A stretch of 64,000 bases of DNA. It comes from Stenomitos frigidus ULC18 (GTDB taxonomy: Bacteria > Cyanobacteriota > Cyanobacteriia > Leptolyngbyales > Leptolyngbyaceae). Location of the stretch: NCBI RefSeq assembly GCF_003003795.1, contig NZ_PVWK01000063.1, positions 1-64,000 on the forward strand. Direction: 5' to 3'. The position numbers and the translations under genes were made by a program. Of this stretch, positions 1,813 through 51,136 are shown piece after piece; within the stretch, counting starts at the first letter, position 1; each line of letters opens with the position of its first letter. The notes below the pieces were generated by a model. The model was given only the letters and a program-made list of their open reading frames with translations. It was not told the origin of the DNA and ran no database searches.

Positions 1813-2556
1813 TTAAAACTGTACTTTGAACAACTGAAAGACTTCTCCCGGTAGCGTCTTCACAACTTTGCCGCCTGCTGTCTGGATCAGTTTTTTCCAG
1901 GCCGCGATCGGTTCCAAAAAGACTTCTGTGCCCAGGTACATTTCCAAAATCGCCCAATTCTCAGCCAGCGGTGTTTCTGGGTCGATCGCATCAAAGACAA
2001 ACACACCGCCGGGTTTCAACACGCGCTTCGCTTCTGCCAACACCGCCGCCCAATAGTCGAGCGGATAGTAGCAGCTCACGCCAGTGGCGATCGCGAGATC
2101 AAACTGCTTTGCCTCATAGCTCAGTTGATGCGCGGCTCCCAACGCCACCCCTTTGAACAGCTTTGAGTTCAGTTGCGGCCCACGTGCGTTCAAAATATCT
2201 CGCGCCACATCGCTAATCTCTTGCCCGTAGAACAGTGCCTCCCACTCGCGCCACGGGTAAATCAAAAAACTTACCCCGCAGCCGATGTCCAGGCAATGCT
2301 GGTTTTTCTTCGGTTGAGCAACATCCCAGAACGGCGATGTCAGCTTCGCTTGTAGAGAACCAGAAGTACGTTCCCGAAAGATCGGCATTGCTTCCACTTC
2401 TTCTGGCAAGTCAAACGCTTCACCGCGATACTCACGGTTAAAGCGCACCGAAACAGCTGCAATCTGGCTCTGCCAATCTTGCGGTGTCTTCAGTGAACTA
2501 AGGTAGCTGTTGCTAGAGAACGCCCCCTGGGACTCAGACTCGTGCTTTTTTGCCAT
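1813..2556 (-). CDS. Class I SAM-dependent methyltransferase
   Basis: A 247-residue protein. The SAM-binding glycine-rich loop is visible as CLDIGCGVSF (around residue 88), followed by the acidic strand-2 end (YGQEIS), the DLAIATGVSCYYP motif IV region and the post-motif AKRVLKPGGVFVFDAID. This is the Methyltransf_11/25 fold acting on a small molecule or lipid; the substrate is not readable. The first ~70 residues (FNREYRGEAFDLPEEVEAMP) look like a substrate-cap extension. It is flanked by repeats on both sides and is not in an obvious operon. Confidence 0.85.
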   Translation of the reverse strand: MAKKHESESQGAFSSNSYLSSLKTPQDWQSQIAAVSVRFNREYRGEAFDLPEEVEAMPIFRERTSGSLQAKLTSPFWDVAQPKKNQHCLDIGCGVSFLIYPWREWEALFYGQEISDVARDILNARGPQLNSKLFKGVALGAAHQLSYEAKQFDLAIATGVSCYYPLDYWAAVLAEAKRVLKPGGVFVFDAIDPETPLAENWAILEMYLGTEVFLEPIAAWKKLIQTAGGKVVKTLPGEVFQLFKVQF

Positions 2557-2595
2557 ACCCAGATTCGTTCCTCTAACAACAGTGTTTCTTGAGGC

Positions 2596-2735
2596 ATCAG
2601 CTATCAGCTATCAGCTATCAGCTATCAGCTATCAGCTATCAGCCTCAGTTCAGTGCTGAACGCTGAACGCTGATTCAATCAAAGCCATCAGCTATCAGTC
2701 TAAATTCAGTACTGACCGCTGACCGCTGACCGCTC
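2596..2735. repeat. Short tandemly repeated heptamers (STRR-like)
   Basis: Seven uninterrupted copies of ATCAGCT/C occupy 2596-2644. They are followed by CTGAACG heptamers near 2656-2672 and CTGACCG heptamers at about 2711-2733, with another ATCAGCT pair between. Degenerate 7-bp repeats of this kind are typical of intergenic DNA in filamentous cyanobacteria. Copy number is probably variable between strains. Confidence 0.9.
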
Positions 2736-2741
2736 CTCCCA

Positions 2742-2921
2742 TCAACGTCCCGTCAGCGCCCGGTTAAAGTTCTGACGGTAAGATTTGTTGAAAATGAGGA
2801 CGGGCCAGAGTAACGCTAGATAAACACGACCGCTGCTGAAATTGGTGCGTCTGAAGCCAGACAAGAATTTCCAGATGCCGAACCCATAACCAATGAGTGC
2901 CAGTACACCAACTATTTCCAT
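2742..2921 (-). CDS. Small conserved cyanobacterial membrane protein, 59 residues
   Basis: This short gene reads from ATG at 2921 to TGA at 2742-2744. It starts MEIVGVLALIGYGFGIWKF, a single hydrophobic helix, then has an arginine-rich turn (SGFRRTNFSSGR) and a second hydrophobic stretch (VYLALLWPVLIFNKSYRQNF) with a basic tail ending RALTGR. A ribosome-binding site (TTGAGG) lies 8 nt upstream of the start. The LLWPVL.NKSYRQNF pattern resembles small conserved proteins I associate with cyanobacteria, but I cannot name the family or a function. Two helices with positive loops suggest a thylakoid or plasma membrane hairpin. Confidence 0.75.
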   Translation of the reverse strand: MEIVGVLALIGYGFGIWKFLSGFRRTNFSSGRVYLALLWPVLIFNKSYRQNFNRALTGR

Positions 2922-3560
2922 GTATCGATCCTCAATTCACTGAAAAAACTCGACTGAAAAAACTAGATCTGTAGTTGAAGCTACGCCTGTCTACCCGATC
3001 GCTCCAGATGCTGGCTGTCAAAAACAACGTGCCAACAACGAAAAACGATAAGAGTCTAAGTTAACGAACGATCGCTCACCCAAAAGTCGAGTTGTCTCAG
3101 CATAGACGCTTCATAGACCCCTCAAGCTCTGCTTAAAAACTTATGTAAAGTTCCAGGCATAGCAGCTTGAGACTTTTGGGATGGCTTTCTAACCTAGCTC
3201 TATCCTAGCTTGCAGCTTACGGGCGATCGTAACAAGCACAGACTTTTCCAGCGGTGAACACAGATTTTTCTGTTTATGCCCTTGATGGACGTCCGAATCG
3301 TCTTTAACGTATGACACTAGAGATGGGGGGAGGGCGTGGGGAAGTTTTGAGTTACAGAGTTACAGAGTTACAGACGTTTGCAAAGGAGTCAGCCACAGTG
3401 GGAGCATCTTGCTCGCAGGCGTGAGCGAGACGCTCCCACTCAGTTGATGTGACTGATTCAAACGAAAATTGCTGTAATGCTGACTTCCTCCTGCCTGTTG
3501 CCTCCCTTCTCACTCAAACTCTTTTTTCAAAACGCTTGGAATCACTAGGATGGCGAATGT
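2922..3560. other. Intergenic region with repeats, no gene recognised
   Basis: Between the divergent small membrane protein and the guanylyltransferase gene. It contains three tandem copies of GAGTTACA (3349-3372) and one copy of a dispersed hairpin repeat (about 3375-3480). No reading frame here has a ribosome-binding site or recognisable product. The promoter of the downstream plus-strand gene must lie here but was not pinpointed. Confidence 0.6.
3375..3480. repeat. Dispersed hairpin repeat, copy A
   Basis: Begins CGTTTGCAAAGGAGTCAGCC, contains a hairpin (GTGGGAGC paired with GCTCCCAC around GCTCGCAGGCGTGAGCGAG), and ends with CACTCAGTTGATGTG then CTGATTCAAACGA and GCTGTAA. A second copy lies at about 12745-12893 between xseB and nadB. 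The shared flanks and hairpin show it is a dispersed intergenic repeat rather than a simple terminator. Confidence 0.8.
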
Positions 3561-6101
3561 ATGCGAGCAGTTTTGATGGCAGGCGGTTCGGGAACACGGC
3601 TTCGACCGCTGACGTGCGACCTGCCCAAACCGATGGTGCCAGTGTTGAACCGCCCGATCGCGGAGCATATTCTGAACCTGCTTAAGCGCCATCGTATTAC
3701 TGAAATCATTGCGACGCTGCATTACTTGCCCGACGTCATGCGCGACTACTTCCAGGATGGCAGCGACTTTGGCGTACAGATGACCTATGCCGTTGAAGAG
3801 GATCAACCCCTCGGCACGGCAGGCTGCGTGAAGAATATTGCAGATTTACTTGATCGCACGTTTATCGTGGTCAGTGGCGACAGTATCACTGATTTTGACC
3901 TGAGTGCTGCCATTCGGTTTCACAAACAACGGCAGTCGAAAGCCACGCTGATTTTAACGCGCGTACAGAATCCGATCGAATTTGGCGTGGTGATTACTGA
4001 TAAGGACGATCGCATCCGTCGCTTTCTCGAAAAGCCCTCCACCAGCGAAGTCTTCTCAGATACGGTGAATACGGGCATATATATTCTTGAACCGGAAGTG
4101 TTGGATTACCTACCACCCAATCAAGAAGCAGACTTCTCGAAAGATCTCTTTCCACTGCTGCTCGAAAAGAATGAGCCCATGTATGGTTATGTCGCCGAAG
4201 GCTACTGGTGCGATGTTGGGCATTTAGACACCTATCGCGATGCTCAATATGACGGGTTAGAGCGAAGAGTGAAGCTGGATATTGCTTATGAGGAGCGATC
4301 GCCGGGTTTATGGGTGGGGCAGAACACCTACCTCGACCCTAGCGCCAGAATTTCAACGCCTGCCATGATTGGCAGCAACTGCCGGATTGGTGCGCGAGTC
4401 CAGATCGATGGGGGCACGGTGATTGGCGACAACGTGACGATCGGGGCCGATGCTGACCTTAAGCGCCCGATCATCCTCAATGGAGCCATTATTGGGGAAG
4501 AAGCCCATTTGCGAGCCTGTGTCATTGCACGCGGTACACGGGTCGATCGTCGCGCTCATGTGCTGGAAGGTGCAGTTGTGGGGCCTTTGTCTACGATCGG
4601 CGAAGAAGCGCAAGTGAGTCCGGGTGTGCGGGTCTGGCCTAGCAAACGGGTTGAGTCTGGGGCAACGTTGAATATCAACCTGATTTGGGGACACGCCGCC
4701 TATCGCAATCTCTTTGGGCAACGTGGCGTCTCTGGTCTGGCAAATATTGACATTACGCCAGAGTTTGCCGTGAAGCTAGGTGCTGCCTATGGTTCGACCT
4801 TGAAGCCCGGTGCCCATGTTTCTGTCTCACGCGATCAGCGCAGCATTGCGCGGATGGTGTCACGATCGCTCATTGCCGGGCTCATGTCGGTCGGCGTGAA
4901 TGTCCAAAACCTGGAAGCAACTGCGATTCCGTTAGCGCGTACGATTGTGCCAACGCTGTCGATCGCGGGCGGTATTCATGTGCGGATGCATCCCGATCGC
5001 CCTGACCATCTGTTAATTGAGTTCTTCGACGACAACGGCATCAACATCTCCAAAGCTCGCGAGAAGAAAATCGAAGGCGCTTACTTTAAAGAAGATTTTC
5101 GCCGCGCCCAAATTCAGGAAATTGGCAATGTCGTCTATGCAAATCAGGTCGTTGAGATCTACAGCGCTTGTTTTGAAAAGCACCTGAACATCGAAGCAAT
5201 TCGCCACAGTAGCTCCAAAGTAGTCATCGATTATGCCTATGCGGTTTCTGGTGCAGTACTACCCCAACTGCTCGCTAAATTTGGTTGCGATGCGGTTGTG
5301 TTGAATGCCAGCCTCAGCCATACCGCACCCAATCCGGCCGATCGCGAAGTCTTACTGAGCCAGTTGGGGCATGTGGTAGAGGCACTCAAAGCCAACTTTG
5401 GCGTGCAGGTGTCGGCAAACGGCGAGCAAATGATTTTGGTGGATGAAGCTGGCAGCGCCATTCGTGGTGAAGTGTTGACCGCACTCATGGCAGATATGCT
5501 GCTGGTGCACCATCCCAGAGGCACGATCGTGGTGCCCGTCAATGCGTCTAGTGCGGTCGAACAAATTGCCCACCGTCACGATGGGAGAGTCATTCGCACA
5601 AAGGCAAACCCTACCGCACTCATGGAAGCTTGTCATGCTAATGCCAATGTCATTCTGGGTGGCAGTGGCGACATGGGCTTCATTTTCCCGCAGCTACATC
5701 CGGGCTTCGATGCCATGTTCTGCATTGCCAAGCTAATCGAAATGCTCACCCTCGAGGAGCGATCGCTCGGACAGATTCGCGCCGATCTACCCCGTGTTTG
5801 CCACAAAACCTGCACCGTCCGCTGCCCCTGGACGGCCAAAGGAGCGCTGATGCGGCACTTGGTCGAAACTCACCCGATCGATAGCCTGGAACTGGTCGAT
5901 GGCGTCAAGATCTTCAACCATCAGCACAATAGCTGGGTGCTGATCTTGCCGGATGCGGGTGAGCCAGTGGTGCACATTTATGCCAACAGCAACGATCGTG
6001 GCTGGGTCGACGAAACGCTACGGGAATACCGCTTGCGGGTACAAAACTTTGTTGATCAACATCAGGGTACAGAAGCAGCCAAAGCGGAAAGCCAGTATTA
6101 G
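3561..6101 (+). CDS. Mannose-1-phosphate guanylyltransferase fused to phosphomannomutase-like domain
   Basis: An 846-residue fusion. Residues 1-235 form a nucleotidyltransferase domain with signature MAGGSGTRLRPLT...PKPMVP and the sugar-binding RFLEKPS motif. Residues ~250-370 are hexapeptide left-handed beta-helix repeats (IGSNCRIGARV, VIGDNVTIGA). Residues ~380-830 have the phosphohexomutase fold. Where the mutase phosphoserine loop (TASHNP) is expected, this protein reads GGIHVRMHPDRPDH, with no serine, so mutase activity is doubtful. Similar fusions are common in cyanobacteria and make GDP-mannose or another NDP-sugar for polysaccharides and glycoproteins. The nucleotide specificity is not certain from sequence. 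It stands upstream of ssb but a hairpin separates them. Confidence 0.9.
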   Translation: MRAVLMAGGSGTRLRPLTCDLPKPMVPVLNRPIAEHILNLLKRHRITEIIATLHYLPDVMRDYFQDGSDFGVQMTYAVEEDQPLGTAGCVKNIADLLDRTFIVVSGDSITDFDLSAAIRFHKQRQSKATLILTRVQNPIEFGVVITDKDDRIRRFLEKPSTSEVFSDTVNTGIYILEPEVLDYLPPNQEADFSKDLFPLLLEKNEPMYGYVAEGYWCDVGHLDTYRDAQYDGLERRVKLDIAYEERSPGLWVGQNTYLDPSARISTPAMIGSNCRIGARVQIDGGTVIGDNVTIGADADLKRPIILNGAIIGEEAHLRACVIARGTRVDRRAHVLEGAVVGPLSTIGEEAQVSPGVRVWPSKRVESGATLNINLIWGHAAYRNLFGQRGVSGLANIDITPEFAVKLGAAYGSTLKPGAHVSVSRDQRSIARMVSRSLIAGLMSVGVNVQNLEATAIPLARTIVPTLSIAGGIHVRMHPDRPDHLLIEFFDDNGINISKAREKKIEGAYFKEDFRRAQIQEIGNVVYANQVVEIYSACFEKHLNIEAIRHSSSKVVIDYAYAVSGAVLPQLLAKFGCDAVVLNASLSHTAPNPADREVLLSQLGHVVEALKANFGVQVSANGEQMILVDEAGSAIRGEVLTALMADMLLVHHPRGTIVVPVNASSAVEQIAHRHDGRVIRTKANPTALMEACHANANVILGGSGDMGFIFPQLHPGFDAMFCIAKLIEMLTLEERSLGQIRADLPRVCHKTCTVRCPWTAKGALMRHLVETHPIDSLELVDGVKIFNHQHNSWVLILPDAGEPVVHIYANSNDRGWVDETLREYRLRVQNFVDQHQGTEAAKAESQY

Positions 6102-6770: not shown

Positions 6771-7352
6771 CTATAAAAACTCCTTTAAAAAGGCGAAGAC
6801 GTCATCTTCCCAGCAGGGTTCTGGCAACAGAGCAAGCAATCTCTGGCTCACATCCGCTTCGATCGCATAGATGTCATCACGCAAAAACAGTTCAGACAAC
6901 GCTTGAGTATCTCGCGCTCTCAGAGGCGATAGTGGTGCAGCGAAACTGTTGGCCTCAGCAGCGTAGTCAATGGCAGTGTTTGCAGCCAGCCTAGCAAGCG
7001 TACCCTTGCTTAACAGGCTGACTCGTGCCCTTCGAAGCGCGTTTAGTCCTGCCGCTTGCCGCAGCGCATAGAGTCCATCGAGTTCGGTTTCGTGCGCCTG
7101 CGCACTCTGTGAGCGTGAGCTTTGACGGTGTGAGAAGGACTCGAAAAACGTCCCTCCATGACTCTGAGTAGCTGAACGACTTTCAGAGGCATCTGAATTA
7201 ACACGTCTACCATTTGAGGAAAACTCATGTGTATGATCGGACGGGTCGCGATCGCTTTCGATGCTGCGTTGTCCCTCCGCAGCATCAGGTTGCTTTTGTA
7301 ACGAATCAATTGACAGAGAGGAACCATTGTCCCCCGGTGAAGAAAGCAACAT
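6771..7352 (-). CDS. Uncharacterised protein, possibly real
   Basis: From ATG at 7352 (a TTG four codons upstream is also possible) this encodes about 193 residues. The first ~90 are Ser/Arg/Gln-rich and probably disordered. The C-terminal ~100 are helical and better composed (LYALRQAAGLNALRRARV, then TQALSELFLRDDIYAIEADV, LLALLPEPCWEDDVFAFLKEFL). I do not recognise a family. No strong ribosome-binding site precedes the start, and an overlapping frame (7043-7423) is also open, so the N-terminal half may be misassigned. It is convergent with ssb. Confidence 0.45.
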   Translation of the reverse strand: MLLSSPGDNGSSLSIDSLQKQPDAAEGQRSIESDRDPSDHTHEFSSNGRRVNSDASESRSATQSHGGTFFESFSHRQSSRSQSAQAHETELDGLYALRQAAGLNALRRARVSLLSKGTLARLAANTAIDYAAEANSFAAPLSPLRARDTQALSELFLRDDIYAIEADVSQRLLALLPEPCWEDDVFAFLKEFL

Positions 7353-7423
7353 AGTAAGCACCAAAATAACTCTGCTGCTGCAATCTGAAAATGAGCGATC
7401 GTGTCGTCATTCACCTGGGTCAA

Positions 7424-8483
7424 TGACGTACAGCCTCACCATCAACCACATAAGACAACATTGAATTTCCAGTAGATGCGCTGACTTCAAACCCGTATTT
7501 AGCGTCTTAAACTGCTGCTGCACCGATAAAAGCAAAGGCTCTCATCCGCTAAGCTTGCTTAATGACTTAAAGAATGACTTAAAGAAGTGATACCAAACAT
7601 CCCTCAGTCGGAGCATTTCAGCACCAGCAAAGTCTAAATTTACCACTCTAATGGTGAGGGCTTGGGGTATGCTGCAGCGGTTCCTCTAGCAATGCCGCGG
7701 TTTAAGTGTGATATCAATCACATCGTTTAATATAGCGGTTCTTCATTGCATTCACTACCCTTAATTGTTACTACAATCAAGAGTAGCTTGACTCAAGCAG
7801 GAAACCCTTCTTAAGCATTAGCACGGTGATTTTGAAGATCAACTAGATGCTTAAATTTTTCTGAAATTTTATGTTCAATGCCTGGTGCATCCTGACCCGC
7901 AGAGGTGGACTTTGTTCTCAAGGCACGATTTCAATCGCCAGTCCCTTAGACCCGTTAGGCTTTTGAAGCGCTTGTACAAGGCAACCAGCCCGGAGAGTCT
8001 ACAACGATTACCTGAGAGTGCTGCGCCAGTATGACCGTTGATCAGGAGCAGTACCAAGCGGTAGGGGATCGTCCAAAAATGATCCAGTGATGGTGCGGTT
8101 ATGTCTTCAGGTTGGGCATTCTAAGGTAGAGATGAGGCCCATCTTTGGAAACACCCAAACGGCACGTTCGTCAAGGCTAAAACGTTGAAACGTCAGTGCG
8201 ACTCTTGAGTGGGTGACGTTTAACCGGAGCGTAATCGCATGCTTGGAGACTAGCCCCATGGGTCAAAGGCGCGATTACACATCCAGTCCGGCACGAACTC
8301 CAGATTCTAGAACCGGCGCTGGCAAAGACAGCCCTTTGGCCCCAGATAGGGTTTGTTTGGTAGAGGCGGTTTCCAACCATCCCCCCTAGCCGTCGGAAGC
8401 CCCCTTTAACAGCGTGCTTACAACACGTTCAGTCAGCTCTCATGCTGTGAGAGCAACGCTCTTCAGCCTCACACTGCTTAACA
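7424..8483. other. Gene-poor 1-kb stretch
   Basis: Only short frames without ribosome-binding sites are present. A 12-bp sequence, AATGACTTAAAG, is duplicated near 7560-7584. The 7900-8350 part has the base composition of coding DNA but is interrupted by stops in all frames I followed, so it could be decayed gene sequence. I could not assign it to any family. Confidence 0.4.
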
Positions 8484-8495
8484 TTGGGATTAGTT

Positions 8496-9308
8496 ATGCT
8501 CGACTCACACTCATTAGCTGAATACTCTTCACAGGTGTTGAATGCTTCTGGCAACACCGAATTAGAGCAGCGCCTGGGTTTATATCGTGTCTTTTTGAAG
8601 CTCTATGAACATCATCGGAGCCTGCTGGATGAAATCCTGGATCTAGAAAACACTGGGATGAAAGCACGCAAGCAAGTGGCTTTACAGTATGTACAAGGAG
8701 TTGTACAAGATCAGCAGGTGCATGTAATGACAAACCTGCTTAGTGGCAAAACGCGATCGGTGCTGCAGCCTCAGGGCATTTGGGTCATTGGCCGCGATCG
8801 CAAAATGGCGCTACCGATTCAAGATAAGCGTCTATCTCGCCGTCATGCCGCTATTCAGTACATCCAGGATCAAGGCTTTTACCTGATTGATTTTAATAGC
8901 ACCAACGGTTCCTTCGTCAACAGCGAACCAGTGCGACACTGTGTCTTGCTCAAAGATGGTGATCAAATTCGGTTGGGGAGTCTGGTGTTTATTTTCTTTA
9001 TCAGCCACACTCCCAAAACGGCTGAAGCGTTGCCAGACGATCTCATCAACCAGGTCACTACTGCTCGCCGGGCGTACGAGTCTGGAACCGACGATTCGAC
9101 GATCACGGATTCGGGTGTGCCGTTATCCACAACAGACTGGGACACACCATTGTCGGCTGATGCGAAAGATACCTCTATGTTTTTGAGACCACCTCTGCCT
9201 GGTAGTGACCTACCACCAGAGCAAGCATCTTACCCGATCAGCATGAGACAACAATCGGAGATCTTAGATCGCTTTATGAAGCGAGATACACCTGGTAACC
9301 ATAACTGA
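8496..9308 (+). CDS. FHA-domain protein
   Basis: Start placed at ATG 8496, with GGGA a few bases upstream; a TTG four codons earlier is the alternative. The 270-residue product has a helical N-terminus (residues ~10-75) and then an FHA domain with its diagnostic residues: VIGRDR, LSRRHAAI and STNGSFVN (about residues 75-165). The C-terminal ~95 residues are Ser/Thr/Asp-rich and probably flexible. FHA domains bind phosphothreonine, so this is likely an adaptor in Ser/Thr-kinase signalling. A second FHA protein, fused to a cyclase, is encoded at 15796-16830. Confidence 0.88.
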   Translation: MLDSHSLAEYSSQVLNASGNTELEQRLGLYRVFLKLYEHHRSLLDEILDLENTGMKARKQVALQYVQGVVQDQQVHVMTNLLSGKTRSVLQPQGIWVIGRDRKMALPIQDKRLSRRHAAIQYIQDQGFYLIDFNSTNGSFVNSEPVRHCVLLKDGDQIRLGSLVFIFFISHTPKTAEALPDDLINQVTTARRAYESGTDDSTITDSGVPLSTTDWDTPLSADAKDTSMFLRPPLPGSDLPPEQASYPISMRQQSEILDRFMKRDTPGNHN

Positions 9309-29000: not shown

Positions 29001-30251
29001 TCAGAAGACAGTGCCATCGCTCTCGATTTGAATGGGAGGACTGCCGTCAGGGCGCAAGCTAGACGCAATGCGCCGACCTGCAACCCAAGTACCACCCTGG
29101 AGAATTTTGACTAAGGGAAGGTCAGTAGCGGTGAGCTTCAGTTGCTGTCGTATGGTCTCAGCCATGCGATCGAGCAAAATAACGGTCAGGGCACGCCATT
29201 CAACGATCGCCTCCGACCCTGGCAAATGTGTCTGTTGTAAGACGATCGGGTCTTTAATTTGCAGCAGCCCTAAGTCCACGCATAAACCACCATTGCGGTA
29301 TTCTGGCAACCCTGTGAGAGTATCTAACCCGGTAATTTCTAAACCCAGTGCTTGAAGCGGTTCTAAGAGCGAGTAGGTCAACCATTGGGAAAGCTTGTGA
29401 AACGGCACCAGTTTTGAGTGAGGGCGATCGTTCGGTAAGGCAGGATGAACCCAAACGTCACCTAAGTTGTTCTCCGCGATGGTGAGGCGCCCGGGCCAAA
29501 TAGCACCAAAGCTCGATAGCACTGCACCAAGAACAGTACTTGCTTCTAACTGTCCGTGAGAAGCTTGACCAAGTAGGTAGTTGGCTAATAAACCAGGACG
29601 AGAATTCTGGGAACCAAAGACCGTAGGCTGTTGCTGAAGACTATCGCCCAACTTTTGCAGCAGCTGTAGCCGCCCCTGAACACCAACTAGCGAGTTTTCT
29701 GCACTGACTTGAAACGCGTTTCTCAAAGCGTCTTCGGTCAGCGTTTGCAGCCCGATCGCATCGGCTTGGAGTGGCACTTTGGGATCGCTAGAAAAAACAC
29801 CCTGACAGAACGCATGAAAGCTAGCGATCGCCAAACCTTCCGATCGCCGCCAAACCTGTCCAGTACCCGGCTCTGTATACTGCCAGCGATCGCCGGCGCC
29901 TGCATCGAGCAAGACGCTGACGATCGCCAGATCAAACTTTGCCTGAGCCTTTCCCAGCGGGGTCAGGCCATCCAGCTTTGCTTCGAGGTCTGCCAAACGA
30001 GACTGTCCGCCCACCTCAAAATGTCGCCAACGACTGTGAAAGGGCACCTGCAAATCGGGGTAACTTTCACGAGTGACCTGCAGCACATATTCAGCGACCC
30101 GATCCAACTGGCTCAAGTCACAGCGAAAGTAGTGCAGTTGATCAGCACACGCCAGATCGAACAGTTGCCCACACCGATCGCGGATCGCTGTGGGAGAACG
30201 AAAGTAGGCGATCGTAGCAGTCTCTTCTGGGCTGAGTAGTTTGAAAGTCAT
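29001..30251 (-). CDS. DUF1688 / URC4-like uracil catabolism protein
   Basis: A 416-residue protein matching the DUF1688 family, whose yeast member URC4 is needed for uracil catabolism through the URC pathway. Characteristic blocks are RDRCGQLFDLACADQLHYF, VPFHSRWRHFEVGG, RSEGLAIASFHAFCQGVFSS and the C-terminal ALTVILLDRMAETIRQQL. It lies 120 bp downstream of the URC1-like gene on the same strand, the usual bacterial URC pairing. The chemistry of this member is not settled. The family call rests on motif memory plus the telling neighbour. Confidence 0.88.
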   Translation of the reverse strand: MTFKLLSPEETATIAYFRSPTAIRDRCGQLFDLACADQLHYFRCDLSQLDRVAEYVLQVTRESYPDLQVPFHSRWRHFEVGGQSRLADLEAKLDGLTPLGKAQAKFDLAIVSVLLDAGAGDRWQYTEPGTGQVWRRSEGLAIASFHAFCQGVFSSDPKVPLQADAIGLQTLTEDALRNAFQVSAENSLVGVQGRLQLLQKLGDSLQQQPTVFGSQNSRPGLLANYLLGQASHGQLEASTVLGAVLSSFGAIWPGRLTIAENNLGDVWVHPALPNDRPHSKLVPFHKLSQWLTYSLLEPLQALGLEITGLDTLTGLPEYRNGGLCVDLGLLQIKDPIVLQQTHLPGSEAIVEWRALTVILLDRMAETIRQQLKLTATDLPLVKILQGGTWVAGRRIASSLRPDGSPPIQIESDGTVF

Positions 30252-30371
30252 TGCAGCGAGCTTCAGTCAAGTGAAGTACGACCAAGGCAGAGGGGAGCAG
30301 GAGGGCAAGGGAGACAGAGTCCGTGGGCATTAAGAGAGAGTTTTGAGTTTAGCTGTCTCCCTACTCCCTCG

Positions 30372-31637
30372 CTAATCGCTGAGACTACGACCTTTGACTT
30401 CGGCTAAGACAGCTTCTGTCGGCACCAGTCCCTCGGTGTAATACCCAGCAGCTTTCTTCGCCTCCATTTCAACTTGCGCATCGGCTGGGATTAAATCATC
30501 TGGGATTGGGACACGTTCGACAACCGTAATACCAGACTGAGTAATGGCATCAAATTTCATGTTGCTCATGGAGATCAGGCGATCGATGCGCGTAATGCCG
30601 AGCCAGTGCAACACATCGGGCATGAATTCCTGGAAGCGCATGTCCTGCACTCCTGCTACACATTCGGTACGGGCAAAGTAGGCATCCGCACGATCGCCCC
30701 CTTCCTGGCGCTTACGCGCGTTATAGACCAAAAACTTGGTCACTTCGCCGAGTGCCCGACCTTCTTTTCGGAAGTAAGCAATGATACCAGCACCACCTGC
30801 CTGTGCGGTCTGTACACAGCCCTCAATGCCATGCACCAGATAGGGGCGGCAGGTGCAAATATCAGACCCAAACACATCGGAGCCATTGCACTCGTCATGA
30901 ATGCGGACTGCCAGCTCGCGATGCGGATCGGTGATGGCTGCGACATCACCGACGATGTAGACCGTCATGCCACCGATCGGTGGCAAAAAGACGTGCAAAT
31001 CGGGGCGAGTAACCAATTCGGGAAACATCCCTCCTGTCTGCTCAAAGAGCGCTCGTCGCAAGGCCGATTCGCTCACCGCCAGGCGCTTGGCAAGCCCTGG
31101 TAAGTACCAGACAGGCTCGATCGCCGCTTTCGTCACGACCAAATCCCCATTCGCTTTCATAATAGTGCCATCGATTTTGAGGCGACCCTTGGCGGCCGCT
31201 TCCTGAAGTTCTGGCATGTTGATGTGCGCCTTGGTGATGGCGATCGTCGGACGAATATCATAGCCCTCCTCATATAGGGACTTATAAACCTCTCCCACAA
31301 TGGCACCGAAGGGGTCTAGCGAAACAATCTTCTCGGGATCTGCCCAGGCAGGATGCGGTCCCAGAAAGGCGGCTGGGGAGGTATTAGTCAGGTCTGCCCG
31401 ATGATTAGACTGTAACTGACCACTCGCCACTGCTAAGGCTCGGTAAACGCCATAAGCGCCAGAGTGGCTACCAATCACATTACGCTGGGCGGCATTGGTC
31501 AACGTACCAACGATCGGTCCACGCACGAGCGGATCAGCTTCGCCCCATTGAATCGCCAGCGGCTTGGGGCCAAAGCGAGACGGGTGGGAGGTCAGAACAA
31601 TATGTTTCGATTGAGACCCGGTCTTTTTGCTTGACAT
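30372..31637 (-). CDS. GTP cyclohydrolase II-like protein, URC1 family
   Basis: A 421-residue protein. The C-terminal half resembles RibA: the zinc cysteines are kept (HDECNGSDVFGSDICTCRP), as is the YFRKEGRALGE catalytic region. The ~190-residue N-terminal extension (GPIVGTLTNAAQRNVIGSHSG, then DIRPTIAITKAHINMPELQ) marks the URC1 subgroup rather than riboflavin RibA. URC1 with URC4 opens uracil in the URC pathway in yeasts and some bacteria. The adjacent DUF1688 gene supports that role over riboflavin synthesis. Confidence 0.9.
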   Translation of the reverse strand: MSSKKTGSQSKHIVLTSHPSRFGPKPLAIQWGEADPLVRGPIVGTLTNAAQRNVIGSHSGAYGVYRALAVASGQLQSNHRADLTNTSPAAFLGPHPAWADPEKIVSLDPFGAIVGEVYKSLYEEGYDIRPTIAITKAHINMPELQEAAAKGRLKIDGTIMKANGDLVVTKAAIEPVWYLPGLAKRLAVSESALRRALFEQTGGMFPELVTRPDLHVFLPPIGGMTVYIVGDVAAITDPHRELAVRIHDECNGSDVFGSDICTCRPYLVHGIEGCVQTAQAGGAGIIAYFRKEGRALGEVTKFLVYNARKRQEGGDRADAYFARTECVAGVQDMRFQEFMPDVLHWLGITRIDRLISMSNMKFDAITQSGITVVERVPIPDDLIPADAQVEMEAKKAAGYYTEGLVPTEAVLAEVKGRSLSD

Positions 31638-32344
31638 AGATGCTCCCTGTAAAAGTGTGACCTGAGACCAAAACGGCAGACCCTAGCTGTACTGACATAT
31701 GACATGAGCCTTTTTGCTGAGTACGTAACGCTGACATTTTTCTTAAATGTCAAAGGCTAACACCCTACGTAAACAACGTTGGGTATCAATACACTTAGCC
31801 GCTATTAGCCTCTAGCTTCTTGGCGCATAGAGTGCATTGCTCGTAAAGTTCCCAGGCTTGGTAGAAAATTCAACTTGCATCAACTACGCTTACGTAAGCT
31901 GTAGCCTTAGTGACGAATCGAGCTACGATTCTACCAATAGCACTTCACCAACAGAATACTTGAAGCATCAGAATCTTCCGAAAGAATTACGTCAGAAACC
32001 TAAAGGCTAGAAGCCAGAAACCCCGATTCAGCACTAAGGGTCGTGGCTTAAACAACCTGTAATTCTGGCTTAGCAGTGTAGTTCGATTGGTAGTGCCCTG
32101 AAGGTAATGATGGCTGAAACAGCTTAAGAGCCTGGAGTCTATTGAGGCACCATCGTATGGAAAGCGCCAAGTATCGACCCAAGTCAGAAGCCGCAACGCT
32201 GATTCTCTCGTTGCTCGCTTGGCTACGTTGCTGCAAAGAGGTGAAAAAAGCTGGGATACTTCCGGTCTGTAAAATTGACTTTAAGCTCTGAAAGCCTTAT
32301 CTAGAAGATCCTCTAGCTATCATTACCTACGTAGGACTACCCGT
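31638..32344. other. Intergenic region upstream of the URC genes
   Basis: It holds a small perfect hairpin TGACATTT (31732-31739) / AAATGTCA (31745-31752) about 95 bp upstream of the URC1 start, a possible operator. The remainder (31800-32340) shows no gene, tRNA or repeat that I can support; two overlapping short frames there lack ribosome-binding sites. Confidence 0.5.
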
Positions 32345-49909: not shown

Positions 49910-51136
49910 ATGGATCTAAAAATTACGCAGGCTTGGTTGCCGGGACGATCGCACCCATGCGATATTGCGATCGACAAAGGCACCATCATCGAAATCGCGC
50001 CAGCGATCTCTGGTACAGCGACGACAATGCTTGAGGCCCAAGGCAAGCTGGTCATCCCTGGCTTGGTTGATGCCCACATTCATTTAGACAAAGCCTTTTT
50101 ACTCGATCGGGTAGATTGGCAAACTGGGACCTTTACCGAAGCACTGCAAGAAACCGCTAACGCTAAGCGATCGTTCACCATTGCCGATATTCAAACCAGA
50201 GCGCGCCGGGTGCTGGAACAGGCGATCGCCTTTGGCACCACGGCGATGCGATCGCACGTTGAAGTCGATCCGCTCATCCAGCTCACAGGCATCAAGGCGT
50301 TGCTGCCACTACGCGACAAGTATGCCTGGGGTATCACGCTTCAACTTGCCATTTTTGCCCAAGAAGGCATTACCAACCAGCCCGGTACAGAAGCCTTACT
50401 GCGGCAGGCAATGACACTCGGCGGCGATGTGATTGGCTCTGCACCCTATGTTGATCCTGAACCGGAACAAAACATTTGCATCGTCTTTGACATCGCTCAG
50501 GCATTTAATTGCGATGTGGATTTTCATCTGGACTTTCTAGACGATGATGCGCCGTTGCTGCTGCCTCTCGTCATTGCTGAGACACTGAAGCGTGGTTGGC
50601 GAGGACGAGTTTGCTTAGGACACATGACTAAACTGGCTGGCTTACCCCCAGGTGAATTGGAGGCGATCGCCACTGCAACTGCTACAGCCGGGATTTCCAT
50701 TTTGGCGCTACCGGCTACCGACCTTTACATGATGTCTCGCCGCGATACGCACAATGTTCGCCGAGGGGTAGCACCAGCCCAGACCCTGGCAGCATGGGGC
50801 GTCAATACAGGCGTGGCGACCAATAACGTGCAGAACTTATTCACGCCCTTTGGGGATGGCGACCTGCTCAAAATCTGCACCTTGCTAGCGCAAGTTCTTC
50901 ATCTCAATACGGCTGCCAGTCACGAGGCCTGTTTGGCAATGGCAACCACGCAGGCAGCTCAGGCGATCGGTCTCTCAAAGCATGGTCTTGTTCCAGGCAA
51001 TGACGCCGACCTGGTCATCCTTGAAGCCGCCTCTGTAACAGAAGCGATCGGTGCGGCCCCCAGCAATCGCACCGTGATTAAAAAGGGACGCATCGTGGCT
51101 CAAAGTCAACTCCACCAAACGCGATTCCCCACCTAA
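49910..51136 (+). CDS. CodA-like amidohydrolase (cytosine deaminase family)
   Basis: A 408-residue metal-dependent hydrolase. VDAHIHLDKAFLL gives the first two metal histidines, RSHVEVDP the next region, DVDFHLDF and GHMTKLAG the following histidines, and LALPATDLYM...RRDTHNVRRGVAP the end of the TIM barrel. The HxHLDKA motif and the RSHVEVDP block are typical of cytosine deaminase/CodA relatives, which turn cytosine into uracil. Creatinine or isocytosine analogues cannot be excluded. With URC1/URC4 elsewhere in the window it would feed a uracil-degradation route. Confidence 0.8.
   Translation: MDLKITQAWLPGRSHPCDIAIDKGTIIEIAPAISGTATTMLEAQGKLVIPGLVDAHIHLDKAFLLDRVDWQTGTFTEALQETANAKRSFTIADIQTRARRVLEQAIAFGTTAMRSHVEVDPLIQLTGIKALLPLRDKYAWGITLQLAIFAQEGITNQPGTEALLRQAMTLGGDVIGSAPYVDPEPEQNICIVFDIAQAFNCDVDFHLDFLDDDAPLLLPLVIAETLKRGWRGRVCLGHMTKLAGLPPGELEAIATATATAGISILALPATDLYMMSRRDTHNVRRGVAPAQTLAAWGVNTGVATNNVQNLFTPFGDGDLLKICTLLAQVLHLNTAASHEACLAMATTQAAQAIGLSKHGLVPGNDADLVILEAASVTEAIGAAPSNRTVIKKGRIVAQSQLHQTRFPT

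What the first reader, a model, noticed from the sequence alone, without database searches (positions are those of the whole stretch)
29001..31637. URC1-URC4 uracil catabolism pair in a cyanobacterium, with a CodA-like deaminase nearby
The GTP cyclohydrolase II-like gene has the long URC1 extension and sits next to a DUF1688 (URC4) gene, the hallmark of the URC uracil-degradation route known from yeasts and some bacteria. The amidohydrolase at 49910-51136 could supply uracil from cytosine. Together they suggest use of pyrimidines as a nitrogen source.
Basis: partly seen in the sequence, partly recalled or inferred. Interest (0 to 1): 0.6.

Follow-up and report, generated by a model that had tools for sequence, protein, structure and literature searches.

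The report
Uracil-degradation gene pair in a cyanobacterium
Two neighbouring genes encode a known but little-studied route for breaking uracil down to urea; the pair is common in cyanobacteria, and its uncharacterised second enzyme has the predicted shape of enzymes that cut a base off a sugar, which suggests how it frees urea.

Summary
Window 30372-31637(-) is URC1 (PRK07198 758 bits, cut-off 403); 29001-30251(-) is URC4/DUF1688 (519 bits, cut-off 25). The pair is not rare: of 388 genomes of the class, 132 carry both, 14 URC1 only, 3 URC4 only, 239 neither. Many relatives add an adjacent upp; here it lies on another contig. Urease is present.

New here: a confident AlphaFold model of URC4 (pLDDT 92) matches the queuosine nucleosidase Qng1/DUF2419 (Z 27.8) and, much more weakly, DNA glycosylases. 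Profile alignment places Qng1 K199 and D231 on URC4 K286 and E317, kept in 53 of 54 proteins; the exception lies beside a stop-riddled URC1. URC4 is thus most likely the N-ribosidase that cuts ribosylurea (phosphate) to urea and ribose (phosphate).

The CodA part fails: the 49910-51136 amidohydrolase scores 226 bits (cut-off 403) and lacks two acidic residues of its CodA relatives; a true CodA-type gene is on another contig. Nitrogen-source use is plausible but unproven; the NtcA-like box found in heterocystous relatives is absent here.

The parts
30372..31637 (-). URC1, UTP cyclohydrolase-type protein (421 aa): N-terminal GTP_CH_N domain plus GTP cyclohydrolase II domain with HDECNGSDVFGSDICTC stretch
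   Evidence: 757.9 bits vs cut-off 403; PDB 7eev/7ej3, 617.8 bits over residues 8-419; tree
29001..30251 (-). URC4 / DUF1688 / urg3 family (416 aa), predicted Qng1-fold N-ribosyl hydrolase; candidate active-site residues K286 and E317, also Q289, E351, R353
   Evidence: model pLDDT 92.3; Qng1 Z 27.8
30252..30371 (-). 120-bp gap between URC1 and URC4, same strand; likely one operon (inference)
   Evidence: coordinates; a URC1 match lies in the same fetched stretch as URC4 in 68 of 80 named relatives
31638..32344 (-). region upstream of URC1; no exact GTA-N8-TAC site, unlike many heterocystous relatives
49910..51136 (+). amidohydrolase, NOT part of the system: distant CodA relative lacking two acidic positions, near CO2-uptake genes

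Best explanation
The pair is the two-gene core of the URC uracil-catabolism route. Upp (elsewhere in this genome) turns uracil into UMP, and ordinary kinases raise it to UTP. URC1, a cyclohydrolase related to GTP cyclohydrolase II, opens the pyrimidine ring of UTP and sheds the three-carbon part, leaving ribosylurea or its phosphate. URC4 then hydrolyses the N-glycosidic bond, giving urea and ribose (phosphate), and urease turns urea into ammonia and CO2. Shown here: gene identities, coupling of URC1, URC4 and a URC-type upp across genomes, presence of upp and urease genes in this genome, and a Qng1-like predicted fold for URC4. Inferred: the reaction of URC4, its use of E317 (equivalent of Qng1 D231) and K286 (equivalent of K199), the phosphorylation state of its substrate, and the flow through this genome's scattered genes. 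From the literature: the yeast genetics that place URC4 at ribosylurea to urea. Recalled: UTP as substrate of URC1.
For: Family scores. Co-occurrence: URC1 and URC4 132 both, 14, 3, 239 neither; URC4 and URC-type upp (one search hits of at least 257 bits) 121 both, 14, 6, 247 neither, of 388. Gene order: a URC1 match near URC4 in 68 of 80 named loci (one of them, L080, broken), upp in 58 of 80, all three in 51 of 80; the three genes are annotated in a row in the 4 annotated plasmid stretches that I opened (Azospirillum twice, Pseudoroseomonas, Gordonia), of 13 plasmid hits; the fifth stretch opened, Cupriavidus, carries no annotation. Urease alpha match at E up to 0.001 in 133 of 135 URC4-positive genomes against 206 of 253 others. 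URC4 model pLDDT 92.3, pTM 0.91; the first 11 Foldseek rows are all DUF2419/Qng1 (best E 4e-10), next row E 0.24; VIA Z 27.8, rmsd 3.2 over 327 residues. Profile comparison score 46.1, E 1.8e-5, probability 78, collinear over 295 columns; best of 60 column shuffles 23.2, reversed profile 18.1. Pfam Q_salvage touches URC4 281-374 at E 0.0053. K286 and E317 in 53 of 54 aligned proteins and in homologues of Alphaproteobacteria, Betaproteobacteria, Actinomycetota and Myxococcota; the exception, L080 (K286Q, E317G), has a URC1 with four in-frame stops in the stretch that is held and a 61-residue upp piece. Passages read in PMC7530994 and PMC3869809 give the yeast pathway.
Against: The URC4-Qng1 link is a predicted-fold match with 16-20% identity; the A2 profile finds no PDB chain by sequence at E up to 10, and Q_salvage is below its cut-off (16.8 of 25 bits). 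The next matches, AGOG (Z 11.3) and MutY/OGG1 (about Z 8), are in the range that the tool warns may be only a common helical arrangement. The aligned acid is Glu where Qng1 has Asp, so catalysis could differ. The residue mapping rests on a profile alignment against only four DUF2419 sequences, not on superposed coordinates. Upp lies on another contig here. The genome also has a RutA/RutB-like pair, so URC need not be its only uracil route. No biochemistry of URC4 was found in the library searched.
Confidence: 0.77

Rival explanations
1. The pair trims the cell's own UTP or RNA-derived pyrimidines (pool balance, ribose recovery) rather than serving growth on external uracil or cytosine.
For: In this genome upp, the CodA-type gene and the permease hits are all on other contigs; no NtcA-like box upstream of URC1 here; the two genes flanking the pair are a histidine kinase and a WD40 protein, not an importer.
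Against: URC-type upp tracks the pair (121 of 135 URC4-positive genomes); importer genes, CodA-type genes and NtcA-like boxes lie beside the pair in some relatives.
Confidence: 0.3
2. URC1 is a riboflavin-type GTP cyclohydrolase II and the neighbourhood is incidental.
For: It contains the GTP_cyclohydro2 domain (59 bits).
Against: RibA/RibBA models give 44.5-62.9 bits against cut-offs of 148-764; tree split 100/100; RibBA is present elsewhere in the genome.
Confidence: 0.02
3. URC4 has a Qng1-like fold but acts on another N-riboside (for example UMP, uridine or queuosine-type nucleotides), not on ribosylurea.
For: Closest fold is a queuosine nucleosidase; substrate cannot be read from the fold.
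Against: Close coupling to URC1 and the statement that yeast URC4 degrades ribosylurea to urea (PMC7530994 passages). PF10343 itself has no match in this genome, so nothing suggests queuosine salvage.
Confidence: 0.15

Closest known systems
URC pathway of Lachancea (Saccharomyces) kluyveri; urg1-urg2-urg3 of Schizosaccharomyces pombe
   Same: GTP cyclohydrolase II-like gene, DUF1688 gene and uracil phosphoribosyltransferase gene; in S. pombe the three are clustered and induced by uracil (PMC2174524 passages)
   Different: Here upp is on another contig and urea would be used by urease; the yeast uses URC3 and URC5 products for urea (PMC7530994 passages)
UTP cyclohydrolase structures 7eev / 7ej3 (named GTP cyclohydrolase II in the PDB table; their link to the 2021 ACS Catal UTP cyclohydrolase paper, seen only as a reference, is recalled)
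   Same: Near full-length match, 617.8 bits over residues 8-419, identical HDECNGSDVFGSDICTC stretch
   Different: Only sequence divergence seen
Qng1 / DUF2419 queuosine-5'-monophosphate nucleosidase (7ugk, 7u07, 7u91, 7ulc)
   Same: Predicted fold (Z 27.8) and aligned K199 and acidic 231 positions
   Different: 16-20% identity, Glu for Asp at position 231, about 100 residues longer, below the Q_salvage cut-off
HhH DNA glycosylases (AGOG 1xqo, MutY, OGG1)
   Same: Weaker fold match, Z 8 to 11.3, possibly only a common helical arrangement
   Different: Small-molecule gene context; none was found by sequence
Rut pathway (RutA/RutB)
   Same: Another bacterial uracil-degradation route; RutA- and RutB-like genes in the same genome
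   Different: Different enzyme families; both below their equivalog cut-offs here

Membership tests
URC1 / PRK07198 (UTP cyclohydrolase type) | score over curated cut-off, full length | tested here: met
   757.9 bits vs 403, residues 5-420 of 421
URC1 / PRK07198 (UTP cyclohydrolase type) | phylogenetically separate from RibA/RibBA | tested here: met
   24 URC1 and 9 RibBA rows, 100/100 (URC1 rows are the window's and every third of the full-length, stop-free ones from the named loci)
URC1 / PRK07198 (UTP cyclohydrolase type) | UTP as substrate | not testable with these tools
   needs enzyme assay
URC4 / DUF1688 | PF07958 over cut-off, full length | tested here: met
   518.7 bits vs 25, profile 1-420 of 420
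URC pathway | URC1 and URC4 together | tested here: met
   adjacent in the window
URC pathway | uracil phosphoribosyltransferase (URC6) in the genome | tested here: met
   C30:53168-53788, 265.8 bits vs 208.35; not adjacent
URC pathway | urea-degrading enzyme in the genome | tested here: met
   urease alpha subunit E 6.6e-294; other urease subunits not searched
URC pathway | growth on uracil depends on the genes | not testable with these tools
   needs deletion strains
Qng1 / DUF2419 (PF10343) | score over family cut-off | tested here: not met
   16.8 bits vs 25: URC4 is not filed as a member
Qng1-like N-glycosidase fold (works like) | same fold over most of the chain | tested here: met
   Z 27.8, 327 residues, rmsd 3.2, predicted model
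Qng1-like N-glycosidase fold (works like) | acid at position 231 and lysine at 199 | tested here: inconclusive
   K286 matches; the acid is Glu317, not Asp
Cytosine deaminase CodA (window 49910-51136) | NCBIfam cytosine deaminase cut-off | tested here: not met
   226 vs 403, 224 vs 438, 196.7 vs 483 bits
Cytosine deaminase CodA (window 49910-51136) | conserved Glu after HxD and conserved Asp (catalytic roles recalled) | tested here: not met
   F and N at these positions
RibA/RibBA | score over curated cut-off | tested here: not met
   44.5-62.9 bits vs cut-offs of 148-764 in six models

The most novel reading that the evidence does not exclude
URC4/DUF1688 is a small-molecule branch of the Qng1 / HhH DNA-glycosylase fold group: a ribosylurea(-5'-phosphate) N-ribosidase in which a glutamate (E317) replaces Qng1's aspartate, which would explain chemically the urea-releasing step of the URC pathway in fungi and bacteria.
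Probability: 0.68. Interest if true: 0.52.

Novelty: new member of a known kind. Interest (0 to 1): 0.42.

Why it matters
The gene pair itself is a common member of a known pathway. What would matter is the second enzyme: a domain labelled 'unknown function' in Pfam gets a predicted fold, candidate catalytic residues and a concrete reaction, so the URC route's urea-releasing step becomes directly testable with one purified protein and two point mutants. It would also tie fungal and bacterial pyrimidine breakdown to the enzyme ancestry of queuine salvage. For cyanobacteria it says that about a third of the sampled genomes (132 of 388) carry a candidate uracil-to-urea route.

Tried and rejected
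Rejected: riboflavin RibA identity of URC1. Rejected: the window amidohydrolase as the pathway's cytosine deaminase. Rejected as a claim for the window: NtcA control. GTA-N8-TAC upstream of URC1 was first counted in 27 of 68 loci against a mean of 4.15 in 20 shuffle rounds, but L080 in that count is an artefact (its gene start was extrapolated off the contig, so most of the locus was scanned); without it the count is 26 of 67. In 13 of those 67 a TAN3T box follows the site by 20-25 bp (14 with L080, shuffle mean 0.6), which is the usual activator layout (recalled). In 26 loci that I chose as heterocystous types after seeing the first count, 21 carry the exact site within 260 bp, mostly 130-155 bp upstream. 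The 14-column window over the site has mean conservation 0.79 against a median of 0.61, but windows in a promoter-like stretch nearer the gene are higher (0.81), so it is not clear which promoter is used. The window has no such site. Upstream of URC4 the same pattern was found in 17 of 80 loci (shuffle mean 2.7) and upstream of upp in 1 of 58 (shuffle mean 3.0); the URC4 ones look, by position and sequence, mostly to lie inside the coding sequence of the gene before it, so I do not use them. TPR gene near URC1 in 30 of 80 loci: no link to function seen.

Searches that found nothing useful: phmmer of URC4 against the PDB gave 25 matches at E up to 1, ankyrin- and DARPin-type short stretches, best E 0.0008, taken as chance because the model's fold differs and the profile search gave 0 matches at E up to 10. 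Papers: 'DUF1688' is in 4 papers of the library (listing); passages were read of two (PMC2174524, PMC4897934), the other two by listing only; nothing that I saw describes a structure. 'DUF2419/queuosine/DUF1688' with two of three terms: 23 papers, 10 listed, none of the 10 with DUF1688. 'UTP cyclohydrolase' 2 papers, 'ribosylurea' 4, URC terms 7 and 8. A uracil/cyanobacteria/nitrogen-source search found 27 papers, 15 listed; none of the 15 looked like a growth study of cyanobacteria on uracil by title and abstract start. So 'not in print' is claimed only for what these searches show of an open-licence library. Passages only were read of PMC12507026, PMC2174524, PMC7530994, PMC3869809, PMC10741476 and PMC4897934. 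The Qng1 structure paper was not held, so the roles of D231 and K199 rest on mutant names in PDB titles and recall.

Sampling: A2, used for the model, holds the window protein and 53 of the 80 fetched named loci; hhalign kept 51 of its 54 rows. One search kept the best 80 of 582 confirmed places, so the 80 loci lean towards the window's relatives. Co-occurrence counts used hit lists copied by hand (the list sizes 135 and 146 agree with the tools' tallies); the urease count was read by eye. The 257-bit line for 'URC-type upp' was chosen by eye; the next hits score 254.5 and 253.3. Of 13 plasmid hits 5 were opened.
Full report
Observation. The first is GTP_CH_N plus GTP_cyclohydro2 and reaches 757.9 bits on NCBIfam PRK07198 (cut-off 403), while the six RibA/RibBA models listed give 44.5-62.9 bits against cut-offs of 148-764. 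Its best PDB relatives are 7eev and 7ej3 (617.8 bits), against 44 bits for GTP cyclohydrolase II 2bz0, and the cysteine-containing HDECNGSDVFGSDICTC stretch is identical in 7eev/7ej3. The second is DUF1688 over its whole length (518.7 bits), annotated as 'URC4/urg3 family protein' in public plasmid records.

Riboflavin test. In a tree of 24 URC1 and 9 RibBA proteins the groups separate with 100/100 support. The genome has its own RibBA on contig C144.

How common. In 388 genomes of the class, DUF1688 is in 135 and URC1 over its cut-off in 146: 132 have both, 14 URC1 only, 3 URC4 only, 239 neither. Of the three URC4-only genomes, one (G123) keeps a below-cut-off URC1 remnant with six stops. Related genomes are not independent, so the Fisher value is not a probability. 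Many genomes also have a higher-scoring upp (at least 257 bits): 121 of 135 URC4-positive genomes against 6 of 253 others. In 80 named loci, a URC1 match is in the fetched stretch in 68 (one broken, L080), upp in 58, all three in 51; some stretches end at a contig edge, so these are lower bounds. In the window's close kin (Tildeniella nuda L033, Stenomitos rutilans L034, Lyngbya HA4199 L093) no upp match is in the stretch; in the window's genome it is on contig C30.

What relatives keep beside the pair. Clusters of neighbours within 7 kb (one or two representatives of each were named): BMP/PnrA-type substrate-binding protein in 9 of 80 loci, its permease type in 15, its ATPase in 9; an NMT1-type binding protein in 12; a ureidoglycolate lyase-like protein in 8; a CodA-type gene in 4 (two of the four scored: 691.9 bits vs 403, and 561.4 vs 483). 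NCBIfam's nearest models for the BMP system are B6 importers, below their cut-offs, so its substrate is open. Azospirillum plasmids carry urc1-urc4-upp followed by a BMP importer and, in the longer stretch, an amidohydrolase; Pseudoroseomonas and Gordonia carry urc1-urc4-upp; the Cupriavidus record has no annotation.

The fold of URC4. An AlphaFold model from 54 aligned sequences has mean pLDDT 92.3 and pTM 0.91. Foldseek against the PDB gives eleven rows at E up to 0.001, all of them the queuine salvage enzyme DUF2419 (Qng1), and then a gap to E 0.24. VIA-align gives Z 27.8, rmsd 3.2 over 327 residues for 7ugk, then 8-oxoguanine glycosylase AGOG at Z 11.3 and MutY/OGG1 near Z 8; the tool warns that Z under about 13 can be a common arrangement in helical proteins, so only the Qng1 match is relied on. 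A profile comparison with four DUF2419 proteins is collinear over 295 columns with score 46.1, E 1.8e-5, probability 78; 60 column-shuffled controls reach at most 23.2 and the reversed profile 18.1. Pfam's Q_salvage profile also touches URC4 281-374 at E 0.0053, below its cut-off. A plain profile search of PDB sequences found nothing.

Active-site reading. The alignment pairs Qng1 K199 with K286 and D231 with E317, and pairs Q289, E351 and R353 with residues invariant in the four DUF2419 proteins (numbering of K199 and D231 from the PDB mutant entries). K286 and E317 are each kept in 53 of 54 proteins and in homologues from Alphaproteobacteria, Betaproteobacteria, Actinomycetota and Myxococcota. 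The only exception, L080 from a Microcoleus bin, has lost both. In the same locus the part of URC1 that is held (residues 254-417, 56% identity) contains four in-frame stops, most of the rest would lie off the contig, and upp is a 61-residue piece. A decaying pathway losing just these residues is what the mapping predicts, though it is one case. The step that URC4 uses E317 and K286 for catalysis is inference.

Mechanism. [quoted passage not shown] An N-glycosidase fold for URC4 fits that step. Whether the substrate carries a 5'-phosphate is not known from these data; Qng1 is solved with queuosine-5'-monophosphate, which makes a phosphate plausible.

Completeness in this genome. Upp, urease alpha subunit (E 6.6e-294), an NCS2 nucleobase permease over its superfamily cut-off though closer to xanthine than to uracil permease models, and a CodA-type cytosine deaminase on contig C6 (680 bits) are present, so a route from cytosine or uracil to ammonia can be drawn. 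A RutA-like (409.7 of 498.3 bits) and RutB-like (328.9 of 378 bits) pair on contig C6 may be a second uracil route.

The CodA claim. The 49910-51136 protein scores 226 bits on the CodA model (cut-off 403), is 28% identical to the CodA-type protein of L047, and has F for the Glu in DFHxDE and N for the Asp in ASDN (the same in the two alignments). It lies downstream of NdhF3-, NdhD- and ChpXY-type genes, with a 211-aa opposite-strand ORF between. It is not counted as part of the system.

Nitrogen control. In many heterocystous relatives a GTA-N8-TAC box of the NtcA kind (recalled consensus) lies about 130-155 bp upstream of URC1 (caveats in Tried and rejected). The window has none. Nitrogen-source use is therefore plausible for relatives and open here.

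Verdict. A real, common member of a known pathway, correctly spotted; the added CodA claim fails. The value added is the predicted fold and active site of DUF1688, which I did not find in the open-licence papers searched.

Noticed in passing
L150 (own genome C6:18000-32000), 6841-7902 and 8353-9144: RutA-like and RutB-like genes side by side, near full-length but below NCBIfam equivalog cut-offs: a possible second uracil-degradation route in a cyanobacterium, followed by what looks by eye like an aldo/keto reductase gene.
   Followed up: partly
L041, L043, L048, L053-L055, L057, L059, L061, L062 and others, mostly 130-155 bp upstream of URC1: Conserved palindromic GTATT(N4)AATAC-type box fitting the NtcA consensus, upstream of URC1 in heterocystous cyanobacteria (21 of 26 loci chosen after a first count).
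   Followed up: partly
L080 (Microcoleus bin), 235-729 and 2468-3703: Decaying URC locus: the held part of URC1 has four in-frame stops while URC4 stays open but has lost both predicted active-site residues.
   Followed up: yes
Genomes G062, G177, G230, G326 (one genus) and G244: URC1 over cut-off but no URC4 match; in G062 and G326 the URC1 frame also contains stops. Looks like lineage-level loss.
   Followed up: no
Genomes G299, G142, G273, G297, G309, G123: URC4 split into two neighbouring pieces (G299, G142, G273, G297) or with one stop inside (G309, G123).
   Followed up: no
window 49910-51136: CodA-related amidohydrolase lacking two acidic positions of its relatives, near NdhF3/NdhD/ChpXY-type genes; function unknown, possibly not a deaminase.
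   Followed up: partly
   Followed up: no
L040, L044, L046, L047, L049, L050, L080: A gene of about 360 aa that looks by eye like a nucleotide cyclase sits between URC1 and URC4 in these Microcoleus-type genomes.
   Followed up: no
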